DNA from: Cercospora beticola | Taxonomy: Eukaryota > Ascomycota > Dothideomycetes > Mycosphaerellales > Mycosphaerellaceae | Direction: 5' to 3' | Length of the DNA stretch: 64,000 bases | Assembly (NCBI RefSeq): GCF_033473495.1 | Contig: NC_088935.1 | Location: 1 to 64,000 of the forward strand | Shown: one piece after another, positions 942-58,902 of the stretch | Layout: each line of letters begins with the position of its first letter | How positions within the stretch are numbered: the stretch's first letter is position 1 | Program-made: the position numbers and the translations under genes | Notes under the pieces: model-generated | Database searches by the model: none | What the model was told of the DNA's origin: nothing | What the model saw: only the letters and a program-made list of their open reading frames with translations

Positions 942-2433
942 ATGGACTCGGGGCGCGAATCCAAGGCGATGAGCAGGAAGAGCGGCCTCAGCTCTTCAAC
1001 GAAGCTGGTCGGGCTCACCGCCTTTGTTGCGACCTTCATCGACGGCTCTTTGTATGGAGTGGTGAGTGACTGCTGCCACGACAGCCCGTCAGCAACACAT
1101 GCTGACCGTCGTGCGCTCGCAGCTGGTGCCAATTCTTCCATATTCTCTCGTTGAGAGACTGGATGTCGCACCCGAAGATGGTAGGCAGGATCTTCCGACT
1201 TCTCTCACTCCCGAAGAGATCGTGCATGACGCTGACGAAGATGAGACAGTTCAATTCTGGCTGTCCAGTATGCTGGTCGCCTTCGGGCTTGCCAACGCCA
1301 TCAGTTCACCATTCATTGGTTGGACATGCGCAAGCATATGCACGATGAGAACCATGTACCTGATAGCTCAGAGCACAGCTCTGCTGGCCACGCTGCTCAT
1401 GTGCTTTGGCGGCAGCATATGGATCCTCATAGTCGCAAGATGTCTGCAGGGAGTGACAGCTTGTGCGATCTATGTCAGCAGCATAGGCATGATACATGAG
1501 ATGGTGCCATCTGGCCTTCGAGGAGCCTGGATCGGCTTTGCTCTTAGTGGACTGAGTGCTAGTCTGGTTGGCTCGCCATTTCTTGGCGGTCTCCTCTACG
1601 ACCATGGAGGATACAATGTCGTCTTCTATGCCATATCAGGTTTGATCGGCGTTGCAATTGGACTACGGCTGAGCATAGCCGATGCTCCGCTGAGGAATAC
1701 TGCACCGTCCTCAGACATATCCGAGGAGTCGCCGCTTCTGCCGGCTACAACTGTCCAAAGCAGCGGCGCAGGCAGTGGAATAGGGTTGGAGTTGCGCCGG
1801 ATGCGGCTTGTTCTAGCATCTCGACGCCTCCGGGCTGCGCTTCTTGGCGGGTTCATCCATACCACGGCCATCACTGGATTTGACGCTGTTCTTCCACTCA
1901 TGGTGCAGCGTACTTTTTCTTGGGGGTCGACACTGGCTGGGACTGCATTCCTCGTACTGGCCTTGCCGAGCTTACTCAGCACGTTTGCCGGACTCCTATC
2001 GAGCAAGTTTGGAGCTCGAAATACTGCCGCTTGTGGATTCTTCCTTACCATATGTGGAATATGGCCAATGGCCTTGATACGCCACAACCAAACTGTCGAT
2101 CACATTCTTTTGTATATCTTGCTTGCCACAACCGGACTAGGCCTGACCTTGGTGCTTGCTCCATTGGCCACGGACGTTTCGGATGTAGCAGATGAGTTGC
2201 GTGGTACGCATCCCGATCTCTTCGACCGCGGAGCTTTTGCTCGAACTTACTCCACCTTCAATATCGGCATCAGTCTGGCCACTGCCCTTGGTCCTGCATT
2301 GTTGGGTTCTCTGTACCATGTTAGCACATGGGCGGTGACGGTCACCGTCTTGACAGCCATCTGCGCTGTCGCTGGCATTGTTGTGTTTTCATTTACTGGC
2401 GGGCGTGACCAACAGGACGAAGATACTGAATGA
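942..2433 (+). CDS. MFS transporter, DHA1 (drug:H+ antiporter) type
   Basis: Exons 942-1061 and 1123-2433 give 476 residues; the 61-nt intron has a GTGAGT donor and CAG acceptor. Splicing joins the first membrane segment (FIDGSLYGV) to the following LVPILPYSL stretch. The ATG at 942 is preferred because an upstream in-frame codon at 915 is TTG. The protein shows about 12 hydrophobic segments, a motif C-like stretch (GSPFLGGLLYDHGG, about residue 200) typical of antiporters, and a polar central loop containing the DISEESPLL sequence. Family members export small molecules at the plasma membrane. As the outermost gene of the cluster it is a plausible exporter of the product or a self-protection pump. 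The gene order is ordinary for such clusters; only its distance from the telomere is unusual. Confidence 0.88.
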
Positions 2434-2463
2434 GTATCGGAGTCGATAAGCACAGCGCGTGCA

Positions 2464-3518
2464 TCATAGTTTTCCATATTTAACCAGATAGCCTCCGTCC
2501 ACGGCGACGATTTGTCCGTTTATATACTCATTTGTTACCGCGAAGAGGATTGCCCCTGCGAAGTCCACATCGTTGCCTGGTCTTCCAGCCGAAATCTCGC
2601 TGCATGTTCCTGGCGGCAGAACAGACTTCTGACTTTGATCGCTGCTGCCCGTGGTGATCTCACTCGGAAAAAGTCCAGGCGCAATGGAGTTGACTCTGAT
2701 GGAAAGGCGGCAATTAGCAATCTCCACCGCCAGCATCTTGGTCAAGTGAATCGTTGCAGCCTTGGCCGAGTTCGAAGCAAATCGGCTGAGCGACTCCTTG
2801 ATGAGGCCGTTGATCGAGGATATATTTATGACAGTGCTTGTCCAGCCGGGCCGGCGGGCGCTGGCACGCTGTAGCAGCGGGAGGAAAGCTGTCGTTACGA
2901 AATAGACCGCAGCCACATTTGTTCGATACACATCATTCCAGTTTTCAAAGGTGGCATTCTCCACGTCGAACAAGTTTTGTCTCACTTCTACTGCGCTGGA
3001 ACCCTCGGGACACTGTCGATTGCTGTATATTCCCGCATTGTTGATGACGATATCGACGTGACTCTCTCGTTTCTCCAGTTCTTGGACGAGGCGCCTTTGG
3101 AAAGTCAGTCATGCTCATGCCACCGATTTCACCTGGAGAGCATTCCATACGCAATCTCGTCTTTGCGCGAAATGTCGGCGACCAACGGTATGATTGAGCC
3201 TTTGATGCCTTGGCCGTGTACTTGCACGACACGTTCCAACTTCGCAGCAGTGCGACCTACAATGTACACCCTGCAGCCGTTGACAGCACTGCAAGTTTCT
3301 GTAAGTCAATGTCGTGCATGGTAGAAAGTAAGGCGTTCGTGGCACTGACAGCGCTTGTGCTGCCATCAGCCCGAGGCCAGAGCCGCCGCCTGTGATCACA
3401 GCAACCTATTGCAAGTCATCAACGCAATGCAGGGTGGCGGTTTTCCGGAATGTACACCTACTCTTCCTTCTACATTGAAGATTCTATGCAGATCGAACTC
3501 ATGATTGTTTGTCGACAT
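2464..3518 (-). CDS. Classical SDR family protein lacking the catalytic tyrosine
   Basis: Four exons (3518-3462, 3405-3350, 3288-3151, 3094-2464) give 293 residues; the introns are 46-61 nt. The Rossmann motif TGGGSGLGL lies near residue 25 and the NNAG motif near 100. The sequence after ISSINGLIKES should carry Tyr-x-x-x-Lys. It reads SNSAK, so serine replaces the catalytic tyrosine while the lysine is kept; the codons there are TCG AAC TCG GCC AAG. Most SDRs reduce carbonyls with NAD(P)H and need that tyrosine, so this may be a pseudoenzyme, a binding partner or an altered enzyme. The closest relative in the window is the intact SDR at 12,783, with which it shares a PLVADIS stretch. An alternative donor for intron 3 (38 nt instead of 56 nt) also keeps the frame. 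It converges closely (30 bp) with the MFS gene. Confidence 0.85.
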
Positions 3519-4645: not shown

Positions 4646-7600
4646 TCATAACTTCGCCCGGTGGGATGGCGTCGATGGCAAGAATGCAAGCTCGTCTCGG
4701 AGGTAGCGCAGATTGCTCTTGATGGCTTGCGTGATATGTGGTTTCCTTGCCGTCATGAGCTTTGTTGGTGCTTTCAACATGGTAGCAGAAATACATCCTG
4801 TCCCTGGCCTCAGTATGTCTTGCAATGCCCACAGGCAATGCTCTGTGCCACGCTTTTCGACGTCGCTCGCCAGCAGCTTCCACCATCTGTCATCGTTCAC
4901 TGCCACCATAATGTGTCCAGTCTCCTGTATCACAGAACTCCAGAAGTCTCGCATCCAAAGTCCATCCAAGACTTTTATCACCACAAGCTCTGTCGCGTCC
5001 ATCAGGCTAGCCTGACAAACTGTGTGTGCCACTGTGCGGACATCTGCAACGAAGAGCCAATTCTTCAGTTCTCCACGACTATACGTTCCCAGCTGTATTG
5101 CTGCCTTGGTGAGCCTCCATAGATAATCGTCAGGGTTCGCTATGCCCCGTTGTACATCTCCAATGACAAAGCTGGGCTTCACCACATGAATCGAGTGGCC
5201 TCTGCTGCTGCTAGCGCGTGCGAAACGCCGGACCAGAATCTCAGAAACAACCTTGCTCTGCGAATAGCCCGTTGCATGAGCACAACTCTTAATCATGTCT
5301 TGCTCATCTTCATCCTCGAGTTGGAGAGCCTGGCCACCTGAAACGTAGACGAATCGTAGTCCACCAGGACGCCTTGCGATGGCTTCAAGCAGCTGTAGTG
5401 TCGACATTGTGTTCACAGATCTTAGGCTTTCGTAGGCAAGATTCCAGTCTACCTTTGCACCATTGTGCATGATAGTATCCAGGTTCTCTCCCATGTTGGA
5501 GCTGTCAGTGATATGCTTCCAATGGAGGTCACTTAGACCCAGGTTTGGCCGAGCGAGATCTCCTGGCCATACTTCTAAACGATTGGAGTAGGTGCTTGAC
5601 CACCAATTTGCCTTCTTCGCTGCTGTCATGACTCGTTCGAGGCCAGCCTTGACATCCGGTGCACGAACGTGGATGAAGACCTTGCGAACTTTGCTCATAC
5701 AAAGTAGCTGCCGCAGTATTTCGATGCCTAGGAAGCCTGTTGCTCCGGTCAAGAGCACGTGTGACATTGGTGATTTGGTCACTGGTCTTCTTCCGTTGAG
5801 AGGCTCCTTCAGCTCGAATCCTCGTGCCAATGTTGAGATCTCGTCTTGGAAGCAGGTTGAGCTGCTGCTGGCTGCTGCCTTTACGTCCTTAGCCTGGAGT
5901 GCAGCTATCCTTCGATCGAGTCCGACGATGGTTAGATCTGGTTGAATGAGTTCGTCCACCAACACTTGCACGCCATAATTCTGCTTGACCGCTTTCGAAA
6001 TAGTGACCGCTTGCACGGAGTCGATGCCTGCATTAGCCAAACAAAAGTCTCGACCGATAAGAGCATCATACTTTTGTTTGTCACCATTGCTCAATATCTT
6101 GCTGACGATAGAGTTCAACTCCAAAGGCGTAGTGCAGCTGTCTGGCAGGAGCGGAGAAGAGATGTCTTGGCCAGAGTCCGTGATCGAGAGACCAAGCACC
6201 CAGTCATTGATCTTTTTGCGGTCTATCTTTTTGGAGTCAGTTAGAGGAAGGCGATTGACTACAAGCCATTCCGATGGTACCATGTATGGTGGTAATTGTT
6301 GCAAGAGAAGTTGCTCCAACGAAGCTGACGAGAATCCGCGCTGTGAAAGATCTCGAGGAGACACAGGAAGCAGAGGAGTAGCTGAGTCGAGAGCAACTCG
6401 GAGTTGTACGACTGCCACAAGTTTTTTAGCATGCACGCCCGATTGCGGGAACACAATCAAGCATTTCTCTACGAGAGCATGCTGTGAAAGGCGGTGCTCA
6501 ATCTCTGTGAGCTCGATGCTCTGACCTCGGACTTTGACTCTAATGGACCAAATCAGCACCAACTGCTACTATTCATTTCTTGATGATCACTTACCGTGTG
6601 TCTCGGCGACCAATGAACTCAATTTCACCATGCGGGGTATATCGAACAAGATCGCCAGTTCGGTAGAATCGCCTCTGAGGCCCTGGTAGCTCTGCATGAG
6701 ACTTCCAGTCGTTATGGTGGAAGAATGCCGCAGCCGTCTTTTGTGGATCTTTGAGATACCCTCGTGCTAGCGCTGGGCCCTCAACAACTAGCTCACCTAT
6801 GGCTCCGATAGGTGCAAGTCGGCTTGAACTCTCAGAAGCGGCGATCCAACATCGTGCACTAGCCAGCGGACGGCCAACGATCTGGGGCTCGTCTTGCATA
6901 TTGCAGTACATCTTTGCCAGACAGCCTCCGGCCTCTGCGGGCCCGTAGCAGTTGATCACCCGATGCACTCTTCCAACGAAATGTGCGACATGTACACGCT
7001 CGACTGCTTCTCCAGCCAAGACCAGCGTCTCCAATGATGGCACTTCTTTGGGATCGGGAATACTAGCCAGCGCAAAAGAGGGCGTCAGATCAACCCAATT
7101 GACTCGGAAGTCTTGGATGACTTTAGTGAGATCATTCTTGCGGTCTTGCTCCGACGGGATGCAGATGCATCCGCCGTGATGGAGTGTAGCAAACATATCC
7201 ACAGTGCTGACATCGAACGTGTATGCGGCGAAGCTCAGCACCCTCGATCTGCTGCTGAGGTGAAGCGCTTCTCCATATGCTTCATTCAGGGTACAGACGG
7301 CAGAGTGCTCTACGACGATGCATTTCGGTTGGCCAGTGGTTCCGGATGTCAGGAGGATGAATGCACTTGTGTTGGGGTATATTACTGGCAGTGGGTTCGA
7401 TGCAATACTTTCTTCTGGCAGGCTGTCCAGAAATGTGTCATCAATCTGCAGGACTCTTGGTCCCAAGAATCGAAATGACGGCGCTGTGAGTTTCGACGCG
7501 AGTATGATGCGGGACTCTGTGCGATCGATGATAGAGCGGAGCCGTTGCTCAGGATGATTGAAGTCGAGCGGAATGAAAGCACCACCAGCCTTGAGAATAG

Positions 7601-8607
7601 CAAGCGTGGCAATGACTGCAAACTTTGACTTTTCAAATCCATATGGGACAATGACTTCTCGTGTGACTCCGAGTTGAACAAGTAATTGAGCAAGTTTCGT
7701 GGACAAATGATCGAGCATCGCATATGTCATATTTCCATCCCAGGCACAGATTGCAGGCTCCTTTGGTCTTCTCTGCGCATGCATAGCGAAGATCCCTGGA
7801 ATCGTTGTAAACATCTCCTTTGGAGCTTCCTTGTTCCAGTGATAAATCTGACTTAGATCATATGCTGTCAACGGCTCAAGGCTCCCAACTGACCGCGCAA
7901 TAGCTTGGGAGGAAATAGCGTAGAGAATGTGTTGATAGGACTGCAGCAGATTTTGAAGTATCTTCACCGAATGGTGCGGTCCTTGGAGCTCGATCGTTGG
8001 ACTCGAAAATTGGGAGCTTGGGGTGACAATCAGACAAAACTCAATCTGCACAGAAGTCAGATTTCCACGGCAGTATTGCATTGCGAAAATTGGTTCCCTT
8101 GTTGCTCACCTGTTCTCTGCCGTGCACACCAAGCCACATTTCTGAGTTCACCGGAACTCTGCTGACGACGTCTCGGCTCTGGAACAAAATCATGGTGTTG
8201 TAGTGCACCAAATGCTCCGCGTCGAACGGCGTCCCTGTGGATTTGTTGGATATAAGCTCAAACACATGTCGAAGGGAGCCTTGGCTTGGAATCTCGAGAC
8301 TATAGGTGGTGATTTCTGGTTGTCCGTTCGTCCCATGGCCAGCTTGTTTGATCGTTGTCCTGTCCGATCTGGTGTCCTTCACTGATGCGAAAGCGATAAG
8401 GTCGGTGGCAAGATATGATCTCAGAAACAAGGCCCATGCCGTCAATATGAGCTCTGTGGAAGAGATACCATCCCTTGCGTAGCAAGTTATCAATCCACCG
8501 GAAGATTTCGGTCCTCCACGGAAGATCTGATCCTCCGAGGATGAATGGCTCTCATTGCTGCTTGCGATGCTGAATCTACAATCGTTGATCTTCGAGTGTG
8601 CTGCCAT
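4646..8607 (-). CDS. NRPS-like carboxylate reductase (partial C, A, T, R domains)
   Basis: Exons 8607-8110, 8045-6595 and 6539-4646 give 1280 residues; the introns are 64 and 55 nt, GT-AG. Residues 1 to about 220 resemble the end of a condensation domain (ELILTAWALFLRSY near 65) but carry no HHxxxDG motif. The adenylation domain follows, with LLTSGTTGQPK (about 395), NCYGPAEAGG, FYRTGDLVRY and FIGRRDTRVKVRGQ. The carrier domain has the phosphopantetheine serine in NAGIDSVQA (about 825). The C-terminal thioester reductase has TGATGFLG (about 890) and a YSQSK catalytic pair. A-T-R enzymes activate a carboxylic or amino acid, load it on the carrier and release it by NADPH-dependent reduction to an aldehyde or alcohol. 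The substrate is not predictable by eye. The start at 8607 is the first ATG in frame; an ATG-initiated open frame at 8726 could belong to an upstream exon. This is the likely core enzyme of the cluster. Confidence 0.9.
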
Positions 8608-8937: not shown

Positions 8938-10721
8938 ATGGCGACCTCAGCCCAGGCCATAAACATGTCGTCGTTTGTCCTTGAACCAGAACGGTCGTTA
9001 GTACCACTTTTTGCCTTTCTTGCCATTCTGACCTCGGCGGCCATCTTCAGACACATCAATCGATCAAGCTTGAACCAGGTTCCCCACGCCCATTGGAGTT
9101 GCGGCGTATCTTCCGCTTGGGTCTTATGGCAGCGATATAGAGGAAAAGAACTAAAAATTCTGGAAGCAAAGCATCGAAAACTCGGCCCCATCCTGAGAGT
9201 CGGGCCGGCGGATTTGTCTATCAACTCTTACGAGCATGGAGTCAGACCGATATACAATGGAAGCTTTGAGAAGCCAGAATATTTCAGGTTCTACCGCTAC
9301 TACGGACGCAAAACCTCTTTCTCGAGTATGAAAAGACACGATCATTCCATGCGAAGGAAAAGAGTATCCGCTGCGCTGGCCAAGACGGCGTTGTTCACTT
9401 CGGAACCCCTTCGTACAACAGTGGACCAGATTCTCTACCAGAGACTCTTGCCCCTCATCGAAGGACACCAAGGACTTTCACTCGACATTCTACCTTTATG
9501 CTACGCCCTCAGTCTGGATGCGTTGACAAGCACTTTGTTGGGTGCTCCAGCTGGGACGAAGTATTTGCTTGATTTGCCCAGTGTTGGTCTTTGGCTCGAA
9601 AACTATGAACTGATGTACTGTAAGCAGGCGTTCTGGCCACAAGAGCTTCCGGGATGGACAAGAGCCTTGAGAAAAATCGGAGTAGACATGCTACCGAGGT
9701 CGTACTACACATCACGAGAAGCGCTTGAGGAGTGGCTTCTTGAGATCTGCGATCGGGCTGAGCTCGACATTACAGTCATGAACCCAACAGGTCTGTCAAA
9801 AGAGCCAGCTTCGTTGTATCAAGTCTTGAAAGCAGCAGTTGAGATAGACTCGCCACAGATGAGCCGCGAAGAGCAGAGACTGGAAATTGCAAGTGAGCTC
9901 TTCGATCAAATCTGTGAGCAACCCTCAAAACCATCCTACAAACACTTTCTGACCTCTCTCTATCGTAGCTGGCGCTCGAGAAGTTCTAGGTACTTCTTCT
10001 CCATCCAAGAGCGTCGATCCAGAGTACTAACTGCTGGCAGGGCTTGTATTGGCGTACACGATTCTCTACATCTCTCAAAATCCCGATGCACAAGAGAAGC
10101 TGAGGAACGAGGTTTTAGCCTGCATGCCTCGTGCCAAGTCTGAAGATGCGACCTATCATGATGACAGAGGCGGCGATGCAGAGTTGAAAGAAGCACAGTC
10201 GCCAGCTCCAGCATCGTTGGACCGACTCCCGTACCTATCAGCTGTCTTGAAAGAGTCCTTTCGCATGCGGCCGAACAGCACACCCTTGCCACGGGTCACA
10301 CCACAAGATCGTTCTGTGTCTCTCGCTGGATTCGAGATTCCTCCCAGTACGCGAGTCAACGTCTTCCAGTGGTTCATTCATCGGAACCCAGAGACGTTCG
10401 ACTGCGTCGACGAGTGGCACCCTGAGCGCTGGATCAGCGACAGCGGAACACTGAAAGTTGGCTCTGATCAACCTCTCTGGGCGTTCGGAAGTGGCAGCCG
10501 AATGTGTGTCGGCGCGTCGCTCTCGCAGTATTGTACGTATTCATAGAGTTGATGAATCCGTCATTGAAGCAATTGCTAATGCGGCCCTCGTTGTAGTGAT
10601 GAAACACACTCTTGCCGCCATATACTCACGATTTTCTTCGAAGATTGTCGCGAAGAAGCAGAATGTACAAGAACCAGGATCTCTCGAAGATGAAATCATC
10701 GTGGTGTTTGAATCTCTATAG
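8938..10721 (+). CDS. Cytochrome P450 monooxygenase
   Basis: Exons 8938-9913, 9969-9989, 10041-10532 and 10597-10721 give 537 residues. The second exon is only 21 nt; with it the I-helix reads DQISGAREVLGLVLAYT. Skipping it also keeps the frame but deletes the helix core. A hydrophobic N-terminal anchor (LVPLFAFLAILTSAAIF) indicates an ER-membrane enzyme. The K-helix ExxR appears as KESFRM, followed by PERW and the haem-binding FGSGSRMCVG with its cysteine ligand. The classic AGxDT proton-relay threonine is not evident; the equivalent positions read AREVLG. P450s usually hydroxylate, epoxidise or couple intermediates in such clusters. Alternative starts are 8818 and 8965; I chose 8938 because it keeps the whole anchor with little extra sequence. 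Confidence 0.9.
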
Positions 10722-11078: not shown

Positions 11079-12306
11079 ATGATCGCAAACGAGACCCATC
11101 CCGTATATCCCGTCGAATCTCCGGCACCGACTTTGCTGAATGGCATCCCGGACCAGTACTTGATTATTCTACTTCCAATCGTCATCCACTGGGCAGCGTC
11201 TGCGGTCTTTGAAGTCTTCGATCGATTTGACTGGCTGAGCAAATATCGGATACATACATCGGCGGAGGAGCTCACGAAGAACAAAGTCACTCGGTGGGAC
11301 TGCTTTGTCTCAACAATAAAATGCCAGGTAAGTCTGAGTCCTTGAGTTTCAACACAGTGATAGTCATTCACGAGACAGCAGGCCATGCAGACTTGTCTTG
11401 GAATTGCTCTTACCTGGAATACCGACCCCGAACTGATGGAAGACGTCGAAGCGGGAATCGCGATGTGGACCAGACGCGCACGCGTTGTCTTGATGGCCTT
11501 GAAGCAGGTCATGGCATCCATTAGACCCCTCCTCGGAGTAAGTGATTCTGCTCTATCATGGCCCCGATCTGCGATTGATATCGCCCGCGATACGCCAAGC
11601 GCACTCGATCTGTCAGCGGGCAAGGCCTTGTACTGGTATCTGGTGCCACTAGTCAAGATCATTGTTGCACTGCTGGTAGCAGACGCGTGGATGTACACCA
11701 TACATCGCATGGAGCACACAAATAGGTGGATGTACAGTGAGTGATTCACAGTAATCGAATACAATCAAGCTAACACGATAGAAGAACACTTCCACTATCA
11801 ACACCACCGGCTATATGTTCCATATGCCTGGGGCGGATCGTACAATCACATATTCGATAGCATCGTCGTAGATGGACTTGCCTATAGCATCGGTTGCTGG
11901 GTGACGGCATTGCCCACCCGTTCAACGCTATTGCTGTTTGGGTACTCTACGCTGAAGAATGTATCAGACCACTGCGGCTATGTATTTCCATGGGACCCGA
12001 TACGAGCAATCACTGGCACCGATGCCAGTTTTCATGATGTCCATCATCAAAGTTGGGGTCTCAAGGTGAGCATGCGTCCTGCTTTCTGTCTGCAAGAACG
12101 ATTACGACTGACAAGGGTGATAGACAAATTTCGGCGCTCATTTGGCTGTCTGGGACTGGCTGATGGGAACGCACTTTGACGATGTTGCGGAGATTGCACG
12201 CCATCGGGCTAGAAGCCGTTTGAACGCGGAGAAGATGCTGCTGAGGAGTACTGCTCAACGAGAGGCGGACAGGGGCAGGTCCATCGATGCAGCGAAGCTG
12301 GACTGA
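11079..12306 (+). CDS. Sur2/BasA-type fatty acid hydroxylase superfamily protein, copy 1
   Basis: Exons 11079-11327, 11382-11736, 11782-12065 and 12124-12306 give 356 residues. The three histidine boxes of the membrane di-iron hydroxylase superfamily are present: HRMEH (HxxxH) after VADAWMYTI, HFHYQHH (HxxHH), and FHDVHH (HxxHH) before QSWGLK. Several hydrophobic segments indicate an ER-membrane protein. The layout (short N-terminal hairpin, NKVTRW segment, DHCGYVFPW, WLMGT near the C terminus) matches sphinganine C4-hydroxylases of the Sur2/BasA group as I know them. In sphinganine-analogue toxin clusters such enzymes hydroxylate long chains, but this cluster lacks the usual serine-palmitoyltransferase-like gene, so the substrate is open. 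The genes at 11,079 and 15,340 are paralogues with identical intron placement and opposite orientation. Confidence 0.88.
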
Positions 12307-12782: not shown

Positions 12783-13847
12783 ATGCGCAGTAAAGCACCA
12801 GAAGAAATCGAATCCCGCAATGTGTTCGACATATCATACGTGACGGCGGTGCTAACAGGTGCTGGATCTGGAATTGGGCTCATGATTGCACAAGCACTGG
12901 TGGCAAACGGAGCAAAGGTATACGTTGTAGATCGAAGGAAAGATGCTTTGGAAGTTGTCACTGCGATCTACAACACCGGCCCAGGAGTTATGATCCCGCA
13001 AGTATATCGTTGGGCTTTTGCCACGATCCGCTGACCTTTGACCTAGATTGGTCGCCGACATCAGCGTAAAGGAAGAGGTTATGGAGCTTGCGCAGCACAT
13101 TGGCTCTATCGAGGGGAATGGCATTCAGCTCCTCATCAATAATGCTGGCATCGCATTGGACCACCAAACACGATTTGCGGAGAATGGCCAACCGTGCTTG
13201 AAAGACGCTCATGCCATATCAGAACACTTTCTACGATCAACTCCGAGCGATTGGAGTAAGTCCTTCGAAACCAACGTTATGGGCGGGTTTCTGATGTCAA
13301 TGGCGTTTCTGCCTCTTCTGGAAAAGGGTTCTGGAATTTTCAACGGGCACACATCGAGCATAATCAACATGTCGAGCAACTCAGCTTTTCTGAAAGACAC
13401 GTGTCGAGGCTACATTTCTTACGCAGCCAGCAAGGCAGGAACGGTGCATCTCAGTAGAATGCTGGCCTCTCTGCTCACAGAGACGAGTGTTCGAGTGAAC
13501 CAGATAGCGCCAGGCACATTTCCTTCTGAGGTATGCACCAACATGGCAGAAGGCATGAGGTTCTGCTCATTGATCTTGTCCCTGACGGCTTCAGATGACT
13601 ACAGGATGCTCGGGAGCAGATCAGAAATCTGTCATGAACCGTCCCGTTGTTAATGCATCTGGTGAGTTCCGCCATTACTTCCTGGCTACAACTTCTAACA
13701 ACAACAACTTTCGCAGGTCGGGCAGGAAAAGAGTCAGATATCGCCGGCACGATACTACTTCTGGCCAGTGTTGCAGGATCCTTCTACAATCACCAGATCT
13801 TATTCCCTGATGGCGGCGAGACATTGATAGTCCCTGCAGCGATCTAG
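12783..13847 (+). CDS. Short-chain dehydrogenase/reductase
   Basis: Exons 12783-12997, 13047-13530, 13595-13661 and 13717-13847 give 298 residues. The first intron (12998-13046) only works as a GC-AG intron with the classic GCAAGT donor; it joins GVMIP to LVADIS, matching the PLVADIS of the SDR at 2,464. Motifs: TGAGSGIGL near residue 27, NNAGI near 103, serine in NMSSNSAF, and the catalytic YAASK near 210. It is therefore predicted to be an active NAD(P)-dependent oxidoreductase, unlike its tyrosine-less relative. Family members reduce ketones or oxidise alcohols on pathway intermediates. The gene converges with the DFR-like gene, leaving 107 bp between stops. The exact N terminus is the least certain part, because residues 1-20 lie outside the domain. 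Confidence 0.87.
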
Positions 13848-13954
13848 TTGGTGGCTTATGTTGAATGAGCCTGCGTCGATTGACGTTGCCGCTCATAGCA
13901 GCCGAATCAGATATCTCAAGCAATTCTTTGCCCACAGGCAATTGCATGACCTTC

Positions 13955-15036
13955 TCAAGAGGTCACTGCTTCCCTAAGACATGTCTCCAGGTCACTGAAA
14001 CCTGATCTTCCATACCGCTCAAGAATCTCTTGAGACCTCGCTGTGTCTACAGTTTTCAGATCTTTCGATGCATTCTCGATCCTCTCCCAATGCTTTGTCC
14101 CCCCGCCACATCCAGCGGCATCAAGTCGTTCCAGTACTTCGACAGTGTCGTTGAAGTTGAACGGACCTGCGAAAGCCAAGAGTCTCTCACCCACAACGTC
14201 TTCTTCTAGAAGAGCAGCAATATGCAAGAGTGCTGTGTCCGTGGCGTTCACATAATGCTGTGGAGGGAATACGTGTCGTAGGAGATGTAGATCATCCGCC
14301 TTGCCATCCCAAAGACCTTTGTACCACCCTCCTGTCGATGCAGATAATTTACTCGAGAGTATCCTGCCAATGACGCAGTTCGGTAAGACGGTGTTCAGGA
14401 CAAAGGGAGGCTTCTCCTCTTTCACGAATCTCCAGCACTCTAATTCTGCTAGAGTCTTGCTCGCAGCATACACAGCAAGTCTTCGATCTTCGGTGTAAGG
14501 TGGAGGCTGCCAGGCGAGCTCAACGTCTGCCCAATTCCAAGTGCTACTGTCCACGCGAAATTCCTTGTCGACGATAGGAGCAGTTGTCGCTGCTGAAGAC
14601 GATGTGAAGACAAACCGCTTGACGCTGGGATTACGGGCCGCAGCGCTCAGCAGATTCTTCACACCATTGACCACCATAGGAATGACTTTGTATGGATTCG
14701 GATCAAGGCTCAGGTCTGATGCAACATGTATCACTCCCGCGCAACCTACATTGCTTTAGCACTAACATGTCGAAGACCCAGCTTCGGGATAACGATACCA
14801 CTCAACAAATGGTCAAAGGCTCCTTCGGTGGCCATGTCGGTAACGACATGAATGTCCAATGCCTCGGATCCCCACTTCCCGTCGAAGACTTCGTGCAGAT
14901 ATCTTCCTTTGTACGCATCGCGAACTGTGCCACGTACACGATAGCCATGCTCAAGAAGCTGCTCTGTGACATGAGTGCCAACGTAACCATTGGCACCAGT
15001 TACCAGAATGAGGGATTGCATCGGTATGGCTGGCAT
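13955..15036 (-). CDS. NAD-dependent epimerase / dihydroflavonol-4-reductase-like aldehyde reductase
   Basis: Exons 15036-14799 and 14745-13955 give 342 residues; the intron is 53 nt, GT-AG. The N terminus has the extended-SDR motif TGANGYVGTHV (residues 13-23), followed by RVRGTVRD, typical of NADP-binding DFR-like enzymes. The core reads FTSSSAATTA with the catalytic YAASK about 50 residues later. Fungal members of this family (Gre2-like and cinnamyl/aldehyde reductases) reduce aldehydes or ketones. In this cluster it is an obvious candidate to act on an aldehyde released by the NRPS-like reductase; that link is inference. The ATG at 15036 leaves a 12-residue leader before the motif, normal for the family. 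Confidence 0.9.
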
Positions 15037-16951: not shown

Positions 16952-17461
16952 TCAGAGCTTTGTCGCACTTGCATTGGGACTAATGCCGACGAATTCGCCT
17001 GGCATCCACCACACCTCCGCAATCTTGCCATCTCGATATTGGTAAAACATGTGTTCCATGCATTTGATCTTGCCGTGCACCCGATGTCCCATGAATTCCT
17101 TCTGCAGGGGAGTGCACCGAAATTCAATCCTGCACCCGACTTGCTGCTTGCTCTCGTCGACAAGTAGCATAGCTAGCTGAAAGCGCATATCCGGAGCTGC
17201 GTCGATGTCTGTGCTGAGCAACTTCTCAAATTCGGCCAGAGGCATGGACTTGTCGTTCAATGTTACTGTTGAATGCATGTGTTCTTTCAAACCTGGAAAA
17301 GGCCGCGCGTTGATGGCATTGATGTAGGCCACGTACTTTGCTTCTAGAGAGTTGGAGGCGGCCATATTGTAGAAGTCGTGATCGTGATTTACAGATCGTG
17401 TCCGGGTTGCCTTGTCCCTTCGACTTTGATCCTGCACTATTACCTCAAATACTGCTTCCAT
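16952..17461 (-). CDS. SnoaL-like (NTF2-fold) protein
   Basis: A single-exon frame of 169 codons. From the internal methionine at 17365 (residue 33, MAASNSLEAKYVAYINAINA) the protein is 137 residues, the usual size of SnoaL-like domains, so translation may start there; the upstream ATG at 17461 is also in frame. The pattern fits this family: an N-terminal helix, a PFPGLKEHMHSTVTLND segment, then alternating beta-strands ending in HMFYQYRDGKIAEVWWM. SnoaL-like proteins act as cyclases, isomerases, hydrolases or non-enzymatic partners in polyketide and other pathways, so the specific reaction cannot be stated. It lies between two cluster genes, which supports a biosynthetic role. Confidence 0.8.
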   Translation of the reverse strand: MEAVFEVIVQDQSRRDKATRTRSVNHDHDFYNMAASNSLEAKYVAYINAINARPFPGLKEHMHSTVTLNDKSMPLAEFEKLLSTDIDAAPDMRFQLAMLLVDESKQQVGCRIEFRCTPLQKEFMGHRVHGKIKCMEHMFYQYRDGKIAEVWWMPGEFVGISPNASATKL

Positions 17462-17791: not shown

Positions 17792-18822
17792 ATGCCAGTA
17801 CCGCTACCATTTCTTGGCGGCTTTCTGTATCGCCAGCTCTTCATCACGCCCTCGCTGCCCAAGGCCCGGTTTGACGGACAGAACATCATCGTCACGGGAT
17901 CTAATGTCGGCCTGGGACTCGAGGCAGCCCGTCACTTTGCTCGTCTGGGTGCATCACGAGTCGTCCTAGCAGTCCGTGATCTAGCAAAGGGCGAAGCAGC
18001 GAAGAAGTCCATCGATCGCGATGTTTCTCCATCATGTGTCACTGTCATGAGGCTAGATCTCACCAGCTACGACAGCGTACAAGAGTTTGCAGCACGCATC
18101 GATGAGGAGCTTGATCGTCTGGACGTCCTCTGCGCCAACGCTGGCATCGCAACCGGAACTTTTCGTATCGCAGAACAAGACGAGAGTACCATTACGACTA
18201 ATGTTGTGAGCACTTTCTTGCTTGCTTTTCTCCTCCTGCCGAAGTTGAAGACGACTGCGGAGCGATACAATGTATTGACCACTCTCACATTCACCTCGAG
18301 CGAAGTTGTAAGTTCATTTGCCCATGGAGGTATATGGTTTTCTCACTGATTGTGCTACCCTAGCATGAATTTACCGACTTTAGGGCCCCAGAAGAGGAAG
18401 ACATACTCACTGCGCTCTCGGATCCAGTAAAGGCCAATATGGGTGAGCGTTACTTTGTGAGCAAATTGCTGCAGGTATTTACTACTCGAGAGATGGCAGC
18501 CCGCGTAGGAGACTCCTATCCGGTGGTCATCAATTGTTTGAATCCTGGGTTTTGTCACTCTGAGCTTGCCAGAGAAGCAGGATGGTACTTATACATCATG
18601 GCCGTTCTTTTGGCAAGATCAACGGAAGTTGGAAGTCGAACCATAGTGGCTGCAGCGGCAGCAGGGCCAGAGTCTCATGGGAAGTACATGAGTGAAAGTA
18701 TGATCACGGAGCCAGGCGAGATGGTAAGGAGTAGAGAGGGGACCATACTTCAGAGAAAATTTTGGGCTGAGTTATGTGCGCGACTAGAATCGATCAAGCC
18801 GGGGATCACAGCGAAGCTGTAG
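17792..18822 (+). CDS. SDR, retinol-dehydrogenase/WWOX-like
   Basis: Exons 17792-18307 and 18364-18822 give 324 residues; the 56-nt intron has a GTAAGT donor and TAG acceptor. The start at 17792 is chosen because the upstream extension of the frame has no domain content. Motifs: TGSNVGLGLEAARHFA near residue 33, ANAGIATG, and YFVSK as catalytic pair after the intron. The final 60 residues hold a hydrophobic segment (LYIMAVLLA) and are typical of fungal retinol-dehydrogenase-like SDRs. Substrates of this subgroup are usually lipophilic ketones or alcohols. It converges with the NmrA-like gene, 200 bp between stops. Confidence 0.88.
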
Positions 18823-19022: not shown

Positions 19023-20150
19023 TCACAGCAAGCTAGCTGGACGAGCCCGCTCCTCGCCCACGGCGACCAGAAACTCTGTAACACTATCGAAATGAACATT
19101 CCCAAAGAGCTCTTTGCGTTGTCGCGCCACGATATCACGTGGCATCGCACCGGCCTTCGTAATCATCATCTCCTCCACGCTTGCCATGTACAGCTTCTCC
19201 ATGTTCTCTGGAGTTGCGGGGAGTGCGTTGTCTCGCTCGATGTCGCTTTCGGAACGATAGAATTTGGTCAATTTTCGGCCTGAGACATGATATTAGTGGA
19301 AGCTACAACAGATACAATTAGTGTCACTGACCGTAGAAGTCTTCCATAATATGACAGAGCTCGTTGAACGACGCCCACTGTCCAGCGATGAATGTTTTCG
19401 AAGGCTATCATGCATTAGTCTGTGACGGGATGGGTGTTATTCTCAAGGCCGGACTGACCCAAGTCGGAGCGCTGAGCAGCGCGACGAGTGCTTTCGCTAC
19501 GTCGCGAGCACTCGTGAAAGATTGGATTTCATCCCCGGAGCCTCTGATCAGAGCCGTCCAGTCATTAGGATTGATCGGGAACTCATGCGAGTTTGTCGGC
19601 AGGAAAGTCTTTTCATCCCTCAACAAATAGTCCATGAACCATGCATTGTTCACGATTGTCCACTCAATTTTTCTCTCCGATTCAAGTATGGTCCGAAACG
19701 GCGCTCGTGAGGTAGCATAGTGTCTTGGAAGCATTGGGAAGTCCTCAATGTTTCCAGCGAACTCCGAGGGTATAAACCGCTTGCAGTTCTTGGATTGACG
19801 ACATGCTTCGAGCCAAGCGCAATGAAGGTCTACGAACTGTTGTCCATCGGCGTTGTTGAACGATATAAAGACACTAGCATTCGTTTCGTTCAGAGTCCTT
19901 CTGACTGCCTCCGTGCTGTAATCACAGGCGCGTCTATCAATCTTGCGGGACTCAAAGAAATCGTCGGGTTTAAGCTGAAGTTTCTGGAGTTTCAGTATTG
20001 CGACAACCTTCAGAAGTATTTCTCAAGTCAACTTGCCTGTCTTGTGATGACGACGAAGTCGTAACGACCATCAGCTATCAGCTCATCACATACGTACTTC
20101 CCAAGGTTGCCCACTGAGCATAATGCGATCACTTGGCGAGTATGACCCAT
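19023..20150 (-). CDS. NmrA-like family NAD(P)-binding protein / isoflavone-reductase-like
   Basis: Exons 20150-20037, 19983-19459, 19404-19332 and 19279-19023 give 322 residues. Intron 1 (20036-19984) needs a GC-AG splice (AG|GCAAGT): continuing the frame hits a stop, and no GT donor restores phase. The N-terminal VIALCSVGNLGKYV is the dinucleotide-binding loop. The middle shows LNETNASVFISF and CKRFIPSEFAGNIEDFP, diagnostic for NmrA-like fungal proteins, then TIVNNAWFMDYLL. NmrA proteins lack a typical SDR Tyr/Lys pair; relatives include redox-sensing regulators and isoflavone-reductase-type enzymes. Within biosynthetic clusters both roles are known, so this could be an enzyme or a regulator that senses NAD(P). 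The C-terminal exon holds a helical region ending in GEERARPASLL. Confidence 0.85.
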
Positions 20151-20735
20151 TGCTGCAAGATGAGACTGCTCAGGTTTGTTGTGAGTCGAGATCGTGAAAG
20201 TTTGAAAAGGTTGAGGTTTTGCATTTGGAGGTAAATCGCACTAGATCAAGAAACACTTCTCGCTACGAAGCTGTGCCTAGTGGAGCTGCAGGTACGGGCA
20301 AGATGTCATGATCATGAAAGCTCAGCGGCATATTAGCTCCGATCTTTGCAAGGCTTCTCATCATTTGCATTTCTAGATTTGATTCCCGACGAGCTTTGTT
20401 GTGTCATCAAGTGGAGTTTCTCTGCATTTCGTGCTTGAATTGTGTATACAGAGAATGCTCAATTGACTGAGTGACATATTCTATTCGGACATCAGGCTGG
20501 AAGAAACAGGCCACAACATCGACGGCCTACTGCAGTCTCCGTTATTTAGTATAGTTCACTTTGCCATTCAATCAGCTGGCATCATGATTGTTATTGAGGC
20601 TTGAACTGCGTGGCCGCACAATACTATTCCCAAACGCAATAGCTGCGACGACACACTGATAAGACGACTGAGTGTGACACCTGTGATGCTCTCCACACTC
20701 CGCGAAGCGCACAGGTATCGACGCCAGTTGCGGTA
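20151..20735. other. Intergenic: NmrA-like promoter
   Basis: About 585 bp between two minus-strand genes. A TATTTAGTATA-type sequence lies near 20,542-20,552. No gene is visible. It should hold the NmrA-like promoter and the transaldolase terminator. Confidence 0.5.
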
Positions 20736-22075
20736 TCAAAGTTTCGCACGTAGTTTATGCTGCGCCATGAGACTCTCAGCATCCACCTGAAACTTGCAGA
20801 AGACAGCAATAGACTACTCCAAGATTAGATTCACGTGAGGCAAGTCTTTCCAAGGTGCAACTTACATCCTCGGTTTTCGCCCTTCCCCTACCTTGTGTGC
20901 AGTAAGCTCGCAGAAAGCCAGCCTCGTCGTCGATGTAGCTTTGCTTCGTCAAACGAGCAGAATGTGCCTGGAGACTCTGGGCCGCTGCATGGAAGACGGA
21001 TTTCTCTTCAAGCCGGTCAACTGTATCTTTTGTATTTGAAAGCTCTTCCAGGACTTCTGCTGGGAGGGTCATTGCATCGACCCCAGCCATGGTGATGATT
21101 TCGTCGATCGTCATAAATGCGCAGGATTTGACCTTAGTGGGGACTCCGTGTTGCTGGTAGTACATCTGGGCTTGTAGGAACAGATCCATGATGGGCTGTG
21201 TATCATGGTACCTGCGGCGTTCAGCATGCCATCTCGGGATCTGCTAGCGCAGACTTACGAAGTGTCCAGATGAGCTCGCAGTTCATGAGCAAATGGTGAG
21301 ATGGATATGCACCCTGCTTCACCGGCTAGCACAACTTGCTCCATCGTGAACAAAGTGGTTGCGAGAGTCTTGATATTGTCGTCTTTCAGCTTTCTGCAGG
21401 CCTGAAGCCCTTCCCAAGTCGCCGGGACCTTCATTATTAGTCTTGACAGATCGAAGGACGGATCCAAATCGTGTGCTATCTTGTGAAAACCTGCACAAAA
21501 TGCTTAGCGTACGAGAGTGTACAGATGTGTGATCATACTCACGATGGCCCGTTTTGTACACCTTCTCTGTATTCCAAGAATAGAGTGGATTGCACATGAC
21601 ATGTATTGAGCCGCGAATTAGAGGAATCATCCGAAGGGACAGCAATATCATCTGCGGATGGTCAGCCTGACAGGAAACTAGGTCCTCCTAGACAATGAAC
21701 CATACCCCGTACTCCACCGCCAGCTCTTCGGGAGAGACATCTCTGAAATCGGCCTCGGCTCGGCTGGCGTGAGCAATAGCTTCCTTGAGCAGCGCAGCGT
21801 GTTTCGGATTGCTCAGCTGAGCAAAGGCTTCCCACTTCAAGCGATTAGTTCACAATGCCGAAGCAAGATCACCAACCGTATCTTGCCTGATTCGATGTAC
21901 AATCCTCGAATGGTCCCAATTTCTCTGCAGCTGCTCATAGTCAGAAACGGTCATGTATCTGAGAGAAGCCGCTTATACCTGTCGGATCGAGGCAGTCATA
22001 GTCGATAGAAGATCGTTCACGAAGATATGTCAAGAGGTCGACAGAAGTTGGAGTGGCTGGAGTGATTGGTGACAT
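20736..22075 (-). CDS. Transaldolase
   Basis: Seven exons (22075-21979, 21930-21887, 21834-21706, 21651-21543, 21490-21259, 21211-20866, 20786-20736) give 335 residues. Intron 2 (21886-21835) is GC-AG (CAG|GCAAGA); retaining it gives a stop. The Schiff-base lysine lies in LIMKVPATWEGLQACR, the best landmark of the family; DCTSNQ near residue 45 and ISPFAHELR also match. Length is as usual for eukaryotic transaldolases. These enzymes move a dihydroxyacetone unit between sugar phosphates in the pentose phosphate pathway. Here the gene is embedded in a biosynthetic cluster and has more introns than a housekeeping copy would normally need, so it is probably a cluster-specific paralogue that supplies precursors or performs an aldol-type reaction. 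The last exon encodes only 16 residues. Confidence 0.9.
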
Positions 22076-23200
22076 GGCTGGAAAGTGTGCTAGCTAGGTA
22101 CAACAGAGGCAAATTCCCTTCCAACGATTGCTACGTCTTTACGATAATCACTGTACTGTGATATAGCAGCACTGCCCGCCATTGCTCTAAGGCACATCTT
22201 GCTGCCATCGCAAATTTTCATGTGATACTTCTCTTCTCGTATCATGCCAGGCGTTGTCGTTGATGCAGGCCGAGCTCGTTCCCGTTCACGTGCGAAGGAG
22301 CTATGGCAACATCTTTGCAGCATGCATGTCATTTATGCAAACTCACAAGGGGCCGCAGCGGGCATCCGTCCCGTTCCCGTGAGGATCATCGTTGAAAGCG
22401 AAGGACGGCGAACACGTGGTCCAAGTGCAACCGAACCCCACTGAATGAGCGGGGAGCCATCGACGGCAACCAGCATTTAATATCAAAGGCTTGGCAAGGT
22501 CGCGCTCGCGCGGCTGGTGGCGGCTTAGTTGCATAAGTACGAGCTTGTGCATATGCTTCAGCATCTGCAAGTCGTCGTTGATCCTTGCATCGGGCCTCGT
22601 GTAATGAAAGCATGAGCAAGTGTGGCAAAAGTCGATGCCTCTTGAGATTCAGTGCTGCAACTGAAAATGATGCATTTGCTATACGATACGAGAATGTACG
22701 TTACGACAGTATTCGTACTGCGTGATTCATTGGGGCTGTCCGAGTAAGGCGTTGATGGACCATGATAGCTGAGAAGAGGGACACAGTCGTCCAGCTCTAG
22801 GCCCCTCGAGCTCCAAATATTCCCGAGACACTACTTTTGATCTTCTTGCTGGGCAGTGTCTTCGACTGTTTCAACGAAATCAGACGGGGACTGGCTGCCT
22901 TCTCTAGTACGTAGTCCCTCAATAAGACAGACGGTGCGGCGCAGTCAGATCTTCAATTGTCTCGATAGAACAGATACAACCATCCAAGATCTGCTCATTC
23001 AACCGTCTTCTTCCATCGGTCGGAGCATCCCGCGAGCATGGAACGCCAAGATTCGTGCCTGTAGGTTGTGTGGTACCATCCCACCTCTACCACCCATTGC
23101 TGATAAGGTGCACGTGAGCAAGATAGCAGATACCTCATAACTCACCGCCGCGCGGTCGATTCTGTCATTTCACTCAACACCGTCTCTGCTGTCGTTCTAT
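22076..23200. promoter_or_regulatory. Divergent intergenic region, transaldolase and permease
   Basis: About 1.1 kb between the divergent transaldolase (minus) and permease (plus) starts. Only short ORFs without domains are present. It must hold both promoters; no binding site could be named. Confidence 0.5.
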
Positions 23201-25000
23201 ATGGACCGCCCTCTGTTAGGTGATCTCGAAGCCAGATCTAGCGGCGGCAGCTTTTCCACGATGAGCGACTCCACCAAGGATGCCTGTCTGTCCGTTCAGC
23301 AGGAAATGGAGACAGAGGAGCATCCGATCCGAAATGCTGACGAAGAGGTATTGGCAAGCCTAGGGTATAAACAAGGTAGCGATGAAACTGGTCTTTATTG
23401 TGAAATGTGAACGCGTATCTGACGCAGTGGCAGAGCTGAAGCGTGGTCTCGGGCTATTCGAAAACTGGGCAGCGACATTCGCGGTATGAGCCTCACTACG
23501 ATGAAAAGCCACGTCCTGACATTGATTGGAGTGCATGAACTTCGTCTCCGGCCTTCCAATCCTTTTTGGCTGGGTTATGGTAACCAGTGGCCCTCAAGCA
23601 GCTTTCACATCTTGGACAGTCGTTAGCTGCATTTCCTGCATCTTGGCTGCGAACCTCGCAGAGATTGCCGCTTCTTTGCCAACATCGGGAGGAATTTACT
23701 TCTGGACGTACTGGATGGCGGGTCCGAAATGGGGTCCTTTTCTGAGTTGGAATACTGCCGTGAGTGTCCCCTAACGGCTTGTGGGAATTCTTGCTCTCGG
23801 CTTTGATTCTGATACTCGCAGTGGTGGAACTGGTCCGCTTGGGTCTTAGCTGTGCCTGGAACGCAGCAAGGTGCTACGAATTTCTTGCTGTCGGCATTGC
23901 AGATCAACTATCCGGATGCTACTGTCCTCCATGAACGCTGGCTATCCTTTGTGCTGGTTCTGGCAGGCCTCTGCTTTGCTGTTGTGCCGGTCACTGTCAG
24001 CCAGCGCTGGTTACAGATTTACTTCCGCATCACGATATTCATCTTCTTCGTGCTTTTGTTCCTCTTCTGGACCTGGTTTCCGATCGAAGCGCGCGGCAGA
24101 TTCCAATCTGCAGATTTTGTGTTTGGAAAGTTCCGGAACGGAGTTAATCAAGGCGACTCACATCAGGCTTCGGATGCGTACTGCTGGGTTATCAGTTTCC
24201 TCTTCGGCGCCTGGGAGTTTGGAGGCTATGATGCATCTGCACATCTGGCTGAAGAAACCAAAGATGCCAGTAAGACCGTTGCCAGGGGAATGGTTCTGTC
24301 CACCGTCAGCACCACGATTCTTTCGATACCTACGCTTGTCTTGATCCTGTTCTGCATTCAAGACTTCGACGCTCTGATCTCTTCTCCCTACGCAAACAAT
24401 TGGGCAGAGTTCTTGGTGCAGGTTATTGGCCGGCGAGGAGCTACCGCGATCCTCATCCTGAACTGGATAGATTGTACATGCGCAACGACAGCATCAATGT
24501 TATCCGCGCAACGCGTAACGTTTGCGCTATCAAGGGACGGTATTCTGCCAGGGTCCGCCATCTTCAGAAAGGTCAATCCTCGTACATTGATTCCCATAAA
24601 CGCCGCTCTGCTGGTTGTAACTATCGCCACAGTGGTCAGCTTTGCTATCTTGGGATCAACAGTCGCATTTAGCGCCATCACTGCAACAACGGTGATCTGC
24701 CAGAGCATGAGTTATCTTTTCGTGCTCGGAACGCGATACAGCCTCGGACGATCGACATTCGCCCCGGCATCGTGGAATCTTGGTCGCTTCTCGGTACCAA
24801 CAGGCTACTTGTCAATGCTCTGGCTTTTATTCTTGTGCTGCATCCTTCTTCTCCCGCAGGTGTACCCTGTGACCTTGCAGACATGGAACTATTCGCCCTT
24901 GTGCCTAGCAATCGTTACTGTAGCATCGCTTGTCGGGTGGATACTTCCTTGGGGTTGGGGAGGTAGACACTGGTTCAAAGGTCCTCGTAGATCGATATGA
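23201..25000 (+). CDS. Amino acid/choline-type permease (APC superfamily)
   Basis: Exons 23201-23375, 23428-23483, 23532-23759 and 23822-25000 give 545 residues; all introns are GT-AG, 48-62 nt. The protein has a polar N-terminal tail of about 75 residues and about 12 membrane spans. Landmarks are GLGLFENWAATFA before the first span, AASLPTSGGIYFWTYWMAG (a hallmark of fungal GABA/choline permeases), AWEFGGYDASAHLAEET, and LSAQRVTFALSRDG. Family members import amino acids, GABA or choline across the plasma membrane. As the last gene of the cluster it might supply an amino acid substrate to the NRPS-like enzyme; that is inference. An unrelated neighbouring permease outside the cluster is the alternative. 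Confidence 0.9.

Positions 25001-57105: not shown

Positions 57106-58902
<1,797 letters not shown>

What the first reader, a model, noticed from the sequence alone, without database searches (positions are those of the whole stretch)
942..25000. Telomere-adjacent gene cluster built on an NRPS-like reductase with two Sur2-type hydroxylases and a transaldolase
The combination seen is an A-T-R reductase, two sphinganine-C4-hydroxylase-like enzymes, a P450, three SDRs, a DFR-like reductase, SnoaL-like and NmrA-like proteins, a transaldolase, an MFS and an APC permease. I know of no characterised cluster with this set. The A-T-R enzyme and DFR-like reductase suggest an aldehyde or alcohol product; the Sur2-like pair suggests a lipophilic chain; the permease suggests an amino acid input.
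Basis: partly seen in the sequence, partly recalled or inferred. Interest (0 to 1): 0.8.

Follow-up and report, generated by a model that had tools for sequence, protein, structure and literature searches.

The report
Fungal gene cluster with repurposed transaldolase
At the very end of a chromosome of a sugar-beet leaf-spot fungus (or a near-identical relative) sits an intact set of 13 genes for an unknown small molecule; it looks as if a sugar-metabolism enzyme, changed at the sites that normally grip phosphate, has been recruited to join carbon atoms onto an amino-acid-derived aldehyde, and related genes lie together in ant-infecting fungi.

Summary
All 13 named genes lie between 942 and 25000, about 0.7 kb from telomere repeats, with intact models. 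Three were found in Cercospora beticola records sharing one contig. The backbone is a degenerate half-condensation domain plus A-T-R. Locus tags and contig lengths show the NRPS-like gene linked to the transaldolase and/or hydroxylase gene in Ophiocordyceps, Hirsutella, Ustilaginoidea and C. berteroae. New point: the 'transaldolase' keeps the Schiff-base lysine (99 of 99 homologs examined) but lacks both phosphate-binding arginines; R181 is Glu, as in an engineered E. coli TalB variant with better affinity for a non-phosphorylated acceptor. Best reading: the A-T-R enzyme releases an amino aldehyde, the altered transaldolase adds a ketone-derived unit, and reductases and hydroxylases finish a polyhydroxylated alkaloid. 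The C-C step is inference. The 'lipophilic chain' is not supported: no PKS, acyl ligase or aminotransferase among the 13, and hydroxylase 1 lies apart from housekeeping Sur2. MIBiG was not searchable. New variant of a known kind.

The parts
1..205 (.). telomere repeats (CCCTAA)n
   Evidence: read directly
942..2433 (+). MFS transporter, 476 aa, 1 intron
   Evidence: PF07690
2464..3518 (-). SDR1, 293 aa; catalytic Tyr of YxxxK not found
   Evidence: (PF00106)
4646..8607 (-). NRPS-like: degenerate half-C, A, T, R; 1280 aa
8965..10721 (+). cytochrome P450, 528 aa, haem motif FGSGSRMCVG
11079..12306 (+). di-iron hydroxylase 1 (Sur2-derived), 356 aa, HRMEH/HYQHH/HDVHH
   Evidence: (PF04116)
12783..13847 (+). 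SDR2, 298 aa, YAASK kept
13955..15036 (-). DFR / aldehyde-reductase-II-like reductase, 342 aa
15340..16511 (-). di-iron hydroxylase 2 (Sur2-like), 340 aa, HRAEH/HARHH/HDKHH
16952..17365 (-). SnoaL-like protein, 137 aa
   Evidence: (PF07366)
17792..18822 (+). SDR3, 324 aa, YFVSK kept
19023..20150 (-). NmrA / isoflavone-reductase-like reductase, 313 aa; best solved-structure matches are A622 homologs
20736..22075 (-). transaldolase-fold protein, 344 aa, altered active site (K147, D27, N46, T171, S191, F193 kept; M109, L169, E196, M237 at E96, N154, R181, R228 of TalB)
23261..25000 (+). APC-type amino acid permease, 523 aa
   Evidence: PF13520

Best explanation
A 13-gene biosynthetic cluster for an unknown nitrogen-containing small molecule. 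Step 1 (inferred from domain logic): the half-C-A-T-R enzyme activates one alpha-amino acid, loads it on the T domain, and its R domain releases the amino aldehyde. Step 2 (inferred from the changed active site and from gene linkage): the transaldolase-fold enzyme, which should still form a Schiff base but no longer grips phosphate, adds a non-phosphorylated ketone unit (dihydroxyacetone-like, or taken from a free ketose) to that aldehyde or to a derivative. Step 3 (inferred): the amino ketone closes to a cyclic imine, is reduced by the NmrA-like and aldehyde-reductase-like enzymes and SDRs, and is hydroxylated by the two di-iron enzymes and the P450; SnoaL may help a cyclisation or hydration. 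The APC permease and the MFS move substrate and product. The expected product class is a polyhydroxylated pyrrolidine/piperidine or amino-polyol. Shown here: gene content, intact frames, linkage of three of the genes in other fungi, and active-site changes. Not shown: every chemical step.
For: Intact genes and families. A code DVVDVACGCK, same or near-same in the related clade; carrier Ser and R-domain Tyr and Lys in 63 of 63 homologs under 1450 aa. NRPS-like and TAL hits on one contig in 9 species within the two listed top-120 sets (C. beticola itself and 8 others), three of them outside the close clade and with different A codes. TAL: Schiff-base Lys 99 of 99, Thr156 99 of 99, Asp17 89 of 90 ungapped, Asn35 81 of 86 ungapped; R181 kept in 1 and acidic in 84 of 99; R228 kept in 3 of 99; the housekeeping TAL of the same genome keeps all ten positions compared. 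TalB F178Y/R181E was found by screening for affinity to a non-phosphorylated acceptor (passages, PMC3962226). FSA, structurally related to transaldolases, adds dihydroxyacetone to protected amino aldehydes to give iminocyclitol precursors in vitro (passages, PMC8062046 and PMC4285126). Enzymes annotated as transaldolases can be aldolases (6 of a purified set; passage, PMC7230286). The swainsonine cluster offers a parallel: R-domain release, proposed ring closure to an iminium, reduction by SwnR or SwnN (passages, PMC5473758).
Against: No chemistry is shown. E96 is Met and N154 is Leu in the TAL, so donor and proton transfer may differ from both TalB and FSA; F178 is kept, whereas TalB F178Y was the variant that uses free dihydroxyacetone well; FSA, which takes free dihydroxyacetone, itself keeps Arg at the R181 place, so loss of that Arg is not needed for such chemistry. 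Some fungi with a close TAL (O. sinensis, Seirophora scorigena, Kuettlingeria) showed no NRPS-like partner in the listed hits. A minimal A-T-R enzyme can make pyrazinones with no aldolase (abstract). No shared promoter motif was found, no regulator lies among the 13, and no expression data were seen for this locus.
Confidence: 0.42

Rival explanations
1. Pyrazinone/pyrazine-type cluster: the A-T-R enzyme makes amino aldehydes that dimerise, as AsaC does, and the other enzymes decorate the ring. The transaldolase is a supply or bystander enzyme.
For: AsaC (A-T-R) alone makes pyrazinones (abstract and section 17 of PMC10512218); pyrazines from minimal A-T-R enzymes appear in listings; P450 and MFS genes are usual in such clusters (recalled).
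Against: The TAL has lost both phosphate-binding Arg, so it is unlikely to supply sugar phosphates; it is linked to NRPS-like genes in several orders. Two di-iron hydroxylases, SnoaL and five reductase-type genes are more than a pyrazinone needs (inference).
Confidence: 0.22
2. One reading: a sphingoid-like or other lipophilic chain is hydroxylated by the two Sur2-like enzymes and released or reduced as aldehyde/alcohol.
For: Both hydroxylases are in PF04116 with three histidine boxes and are 38% and 35% identical to the genome's own Sur2.
Against: No PKS, FAS, acyl-CoA ligase or aminotransferase gene among the 13; Asp235 of the A domain points to an alpha-amino acid; hydroxylase 1 sits apart from housekeeping Sur2.
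Confidence: 0.12
3. The aldol partner is not the NRPS-like aldehyde: the TAL-fold enzyme does a retro-aldol or an aldol on a different intermediate made after the oxidations.
For: Active site fits any non-phosphorylated Schiff-base aldolase; Leu at 154 and Met at 96 suggest an unusual donor; the family is also found in many Aspergillus and Penicillium species whose gene neighbours could not be seen.
Against: Linkage with NRPS-like genes of differing A codes suits a shared early step.
Confidence: 0.18
4. Not one pathway: a subtelomeric collection of secondary-metabolism genes.
For: Subtelomeric position; no common promoter motif; only NRPS-like, TAL and hydroxylase linkage could be tested elsewhere; all three together on one contig were seen only in C. 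beticola, O. camponoti-leonardi and O. australis.
Against: Pairs of the three tested genes stay linked in distant fungi; all 13 frames are intact.
Confidence: 0.06

Closest known systems
asa (aspergillic acid) cluster, AsaC
   Same: single-module A-T-R enzyme, amino acid substrates, pyrazinone made by the A-T-R enzyme alone
   Different: no transaldolase or Sur2-type enzyme is named in the parts read (abstract and section 17 of PMC10512218); ours carries a degenerate half-C domain in front
SWN (swainsonine) cluster
   Same: thioester-reductase release, NmrA-like reductase, two hydroxylases, a transmembrane transporter; amino-acid-derived hydroxylated alkaloid is the product class proposed here
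   Different: SwnK has KS and AT domains; hydroxylases are Fe/2-oxoglutarate enzymes; no transaldolase is named in the passages read (PMC5473758)
E. coli TalB / FsaA and the engineered TalB F178Y/R181E
   Same: TAL_FSA family, Schiff-base Lys, Asp17, Asn35, Thr156; Glu at 181 as in the engineered variant; Leu at 154 as in FSA
   Different: Met at 96, F178 kept, R228 lost
Lincomycin LmbR
   Same: a transaldolase inside a natural-product cluster that builds part of the product
   Different: bacterial; builds an octose 8-phosphate (table entry and title of reference 14 in PMC4351081), so it works on phosphates
Sur2 sphinganine C4-hydroxylase
   Same: PF04116, histidine boxes
   Different: shorter than the genome's own Sur2 (356 and 340 against 461 aa); hydroxylase 1 in a separate clade

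Membership tests
NRPS-like A-T-R reductase | adenylation domain with Asp235 | tested here: met
   PF00501 190.7 bits; code DVVDVACGCK (GrsA positions recalled)
NRPS-like A-T-R reductase | carrier domain with phosphopantetheine serine | tested here: inconclusive
   PF00550 19.2 bits against cut-off 20.8; Ser conserved in 63 of 63 homologs under 1450 aa
NRPS-like A-T-R reductase | thioester reductase domain with YxxxK | tested here: met
   PF07993 139.1 bits; Tyr and Lys 63 of 63
NRPS-like A-T-R reductase | no working condensation domain | tested here: met
   no HHxxxD in residues 1-260; profile match only to the C-terminal half of C domains, probability 99.3
sugar-phosphate transaldolase (TalB type) | Schiff-base Lys, Asp17, Asn35, Thr156 | tested here: met
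   K147, D27, N46, T171
sugar-phosphate transaldolase (TalB type) | Glu96 | tested here: not met
   Met109
sugar-phosphate transaldolase (TalB type) | phosphate-binding Arg181 and Arg228 | tested here: not met
   Glu196 and Met237; NCBIfam talAB 105.6 bits against cut-off 396.2, a cut-off set for prokaryotes
fructose-6-phosphate aldolase (FSA) | curated equivalog score; Tyr131 | tested here: not met
   49.8 against 245.95 bits (prokaryote cut-off); Phe193
Sur2 sphinganine C4-hydroxylase | PF04116 with three histidine boxes | tested here: met
Sur2 sphinganine C4-hydroxylase | groups with housekeeping Sur2 | tested here: not met
   hydroxylase 1 and cluster-linked relatives form a clade (100/99) apart from own Sur2; hydroxylase 2 is a long branch, place unsure
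SWN-type cluster | NRPS-PKS with KS and AT | tested here: not met
   no KS or AT in 13 models
SWN-type cluster | NmrA-like reductase orthologous to SwnN | tested here: inconclusive
   PF05368 21.5 bits, below its 27 cut-off; PF13460 above; SwnN itself not compared
any MIBiG cluster | same gene set | not testable with these tools
   MIBiG not held

The most novel reading that the evidence does not exclude
A wide fungal class of clusters in which a transaldolase, changed so as to work without phosphate, is the carbon-carbon bond-forming partner of an NRPS-like reductase: it adds a sugar-derived ketone unit to a freshly released amino aldehyde. Different A-domain codes linked to the same TAL family would then give a family of natural iminosugar-like alkaloids, made by the same logic that chemists designed with FSA and TalB variants.
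Probability: 0.3. Interest if true: 0.82.

Novelty: new variant of a known kind. Interest (0 to 1): 0.6.

Why it matters
If right, it names a new way for fungi to build polyhydroxylated alkaloids, gives a naturally evolved enzyme for a reaction that has been engineered by hand, and offers a genome-mining handle (TAL with Glu/Asp at 181 near an A-T-R gene) for Ophiocordyceps, Hirsutella, Ustilaginoidea, Cercospora and lichen-forming fungi. Each step can be tested with purified single enzymes.

Tried and rejected
Condensation domain by Pfam: no match for residues 1-237 even at E 10; profile comparison then showed a C-domain remnant.

Shared promoter motif: none beyond controls (best 7-mer in 6 of 10 regions; random sets of ten background promoters reached 6 or more in 144 of 200 draws; no 8-mer in 5 or more regions).

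A second copy of the cluster in the genome: the closest of the NRPS-like loci compared (C9, L031) is 30-39% identical; other TAL genes found are the housekeeping one (C6) and a third on C9.

GC-AG introns as a mark of the cluster: 4 of 32 in my models against 1 of 77 predicted elsewhere with a GC penalty, but 17 of 94 when the penalty was relaxed; no enrichment can be claimed.

Literature by locus tags: only UV8b_06058 is mentioned, in a list of genes lowered by rapamycin (one passage, PMC12028740). An NRPS-like gene (g768) rises during ant biting in O. unilateralis (passages, PMC4545319); whether it is this one is unknown and I do not claim it. Passages of PMC4625970 and PMC7203126 gave nothing on this cluster.

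Substrate prediction from the A code: Asp/Asn at 278 might suit a polar or basic side chain; too weak, left open. RNA families and tRNAs: none in the window.

In one search the comparison with own Sur2 picked the wrong protein; redone. In the alignment FSA shows Leu at the E96 column, probably one column off Gln59. Structure comparison of the TAL model (pLDDT 95.5) was not possible (below).
Full report
Where it is. The window starts with about 205 bases of CCCTAA repeats and is the end of contig C1 (5,491,689 bases) of a 36.07-Mb, 10-contig genome. The NRPS-like protein is 99% identical over 100% of its length to a Cercospora beticola protein (the listed sequence differs by a gene-model gap), hydroxylase 1 is 100% and the TAL, after correction of a splice, is identical. 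The genome is C. beticola or something nearly identical. Those three C. beticola records list the same longest contig, 6,188,355 bases, so a differently assembled contig carries the locus.

Gene content. A small gene finder trained on the window, 20 stretches and eight search loci of the same genome, with manual splicing guided by paralogues and homologues, gave 13 intact models from 942 to 25000. Pfam supports 13 of 13. The two PF04116 proteins are paralogues (35% identity), as are SDR1 and SDR2 (39%). The next predicted gene, at 27759, has a kinase domain; a ribosomal L6 gene lies at 42406. No regulator is among the 13.

NRPS-like protein. Residues 1-237 show no Pfam match, but a profile of 20 such N-termini matches the C-terminal half of condensation domains taken from 34 NRPS hits (columns 227-472 of 473; probability 99.3, E 2.7e-20; no HHxxxD). 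Then follow A, T and R. The specificity code read from GrsA positions (recalled) is DVVDVACGCK. In the ten closest hits (P0001-P0010) the first nine positions are DVV(D/N)(V/I)ACGC in 9 of 10, and DAVNVACGV in Ustilaginoidea; more distant homologs have other codes, often DVIIAGIIC. The carrier Ser and R-domain Tyr and Lys are kept in 63 of 63 homologs under 1450 aa, out of 120 listed and 1076 found.

Linkage elsewhere. Using the contig lengths and locus tags printed in the three homology searches (120 of 1076, 120 of 150 and 57 of 57 listed), NRPS-like and TAL hits share a contig in nine species: C. beticola; Hirsutella minnesotensis (HIM_05244, HIM_05247); Ophiocordyceps unilateralis (XA68_13375, 13383); O. 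camponoti-leonardi (CP532_3060, 3030, with hydroxylase 3047 between); O. polyrhachis-furcata (L249_3146, 3182); O. australis (CDD81_2587, 2578, hydroxylase 2582, contig 40.8 kb); and, more distant, Xylographa opegraphella (MMC26_000719, 000723), Seirophora villosa (LQ345_002803, 002804) and Phlyctema vagabunda (same 1.92-Mb contig, distance unknown). Hydroxylase and NRPS-like also share a contig in C. berteroae (CBER1_06125, 06127) and Ustilaginoidea virens (UVI_02050960, 02051020). In O. camponoti-leonardi and O. polyrhachis-furcata the tags are 30-36 apart, so linkage there is looser. Against: O. sinensis, Seirophora scorigena and Kuettlingeria have a close TAL but no NRPS-like partner in the listed hits, and in Scytalidium lignicola the NRPS-like gene and the hydroxylase are on different contigs. 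This was read by eye from the tables. Linkage of the other ten genes was not tested.

Distribution. In a tree of 33 TALs chosen from the 120 listed, 12 form one clade (100/99): C. beticola, seven Hypocreales, two lichen-forming fungi and two metagenome sequences, with C. beticola nearest the lichens at weak support (83/80). No other Dothideomycete is in that clade among the 33. This patchy pattern suggests horizontal spread; it was not tested against a species tree.

The transaldolase. Against E. coli TalB and FsaA and the genome's own housekeeping TAL (C6, L029), the window protein keeps D17, N35, K132, T156, S176 and F178, but has Met for E96, Leu for N154, Glu for R181 and Met for R228. Among 99 homologs of 280-420 aa (21 of the 120 listed were dropped for length): K132 99, T156 99, Leu at 154 99, D17 89 (9 gaps), N35 81 (13 gaps), Met at 96 85 (Gln 10), acidic at 181 84 (R 1, gap 3), R228 kept 3. 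The housekeeping TAL keeps all ten. FSA keeps Arg at the R181 place. The model is confident (mean pLDDT 95.5). In TalB F178Y, two Arg and a Ser bind the acceptor phosphate, and R181E gave at least a two-fold better affinity for D-glyceraldehyde (passages, PMC3962226). Nature has therefore made the same change, plus the loss of the second Arg. FSA has Leu where TalB has N154. So the enzyme should be a Schiff-base aldolase or transaldolase for non-phosphorylated substrates; this is inference from sequence.

Other enzymes. Hydroxylase 1 falls in a clade (100/99) with the cluster-linked hydroxylases of C. berteroae, Ophiocordyceps and Ustilaginoidea and with sequences from Scytalidium, a lichen fungus and metagenomes, apart from Sur2 including the genome's own copy (C3, L035); hydroxylase 2 is a long branch whose place is unsure. 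Three histidine boxes are present in both. The DFR-like protein matches a 'ketoreductase' and aldehyde reductase II best among solved structures (E about 1e-69 to 1e-68). The NmrA-like protein matches isoflavone-reductase homolog A622 (E 2.9e-11), which I recall as a pyridine-alkaloid enzyme. SDR1 and SDR2 match Spm14 (9k8q), whose role I do not know; SDR1 has no Tyr in the YxxxK place.

How it probably works. Amino acid to amino aldehyde (A-T-R), aldol addition of a ketone unit by the altered TAL, ring closure to an imine, reduction, then hydroxylation by two di-iron enzymes and a P450, with transport by MFS and APC proteins. Precedents: FSA adds dihydroxyacetone to protected amino aldehydes on the way to D-fagomine (passages, PMC8062046, PMC4285126); six purified enzymes annotated as transaldolases showed aldolase activity (passage, PMC7230286); in swainsonine biosynthesis the R-domain product is proposed to close to an iminium reduced by SwnR or SwnN (passages, PMC5473758); a transaldolase (LmbR) helps build the lincomycin sugar (passages, PMC4351081). 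None is the same system.

Novelty. Seven full-text searches aimed at such a cluster (I saw listings, capped at 20 rows in 27, 42 and 43, and opened only the papers named in this report) gave no description of a fungal NRPS-like/transaldolase cluster; MIBiG and subscription papers were not searchable. I file it as a new variant of a known kind (NRPS-like cluster), with a potentially new enzyme role.

Noticed in passing
introns 12998-13046, 16202-16250, 19984-20036, 21835-21886: 4 of 32 introns in my cluster models are GC-AG. Elsewhere 1 of 77 predicted introns with a GC penalty but 17 of 94 with it relaxed, so enrichment is not shown. The TAL one is also used in database protein P0121.
   Followed up: partly
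2464-3518: SDR1 lacks the catalytic Tyr of YxxxK while its paralogue SDR2 keeps it: possibly a non-reductase role.
   Followed up: no
8965-10721: P450 I-helix reads AGAREV by eye, without the usual acidic-Thr pair, although the haem motif is intact; it depends on a predicted 21-base exon, so the model may be off.
   Followed up: no
L030 4289-5438 (G000 C9): A third transaldolase-like gene (361 aa) also has Glu at R181 and Leu at N154 and sits beside a gene that looks by eye like a sugar transporter.
   Followed up: no
501-995: Open minus-strand frame of 164 aa between telomere repeats and the MFS gene; no Pfam match up to E 0.1.
   Followed up: partly
59055-61123: DUF2264 protein (410 bits) in the right part of the window, with a Fungal_trans regulator at 52904-54976 and genes that look by eye like MFS transporters at 57106 and 62191: possibly a separate catabolic cluster.
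   Followed up: no
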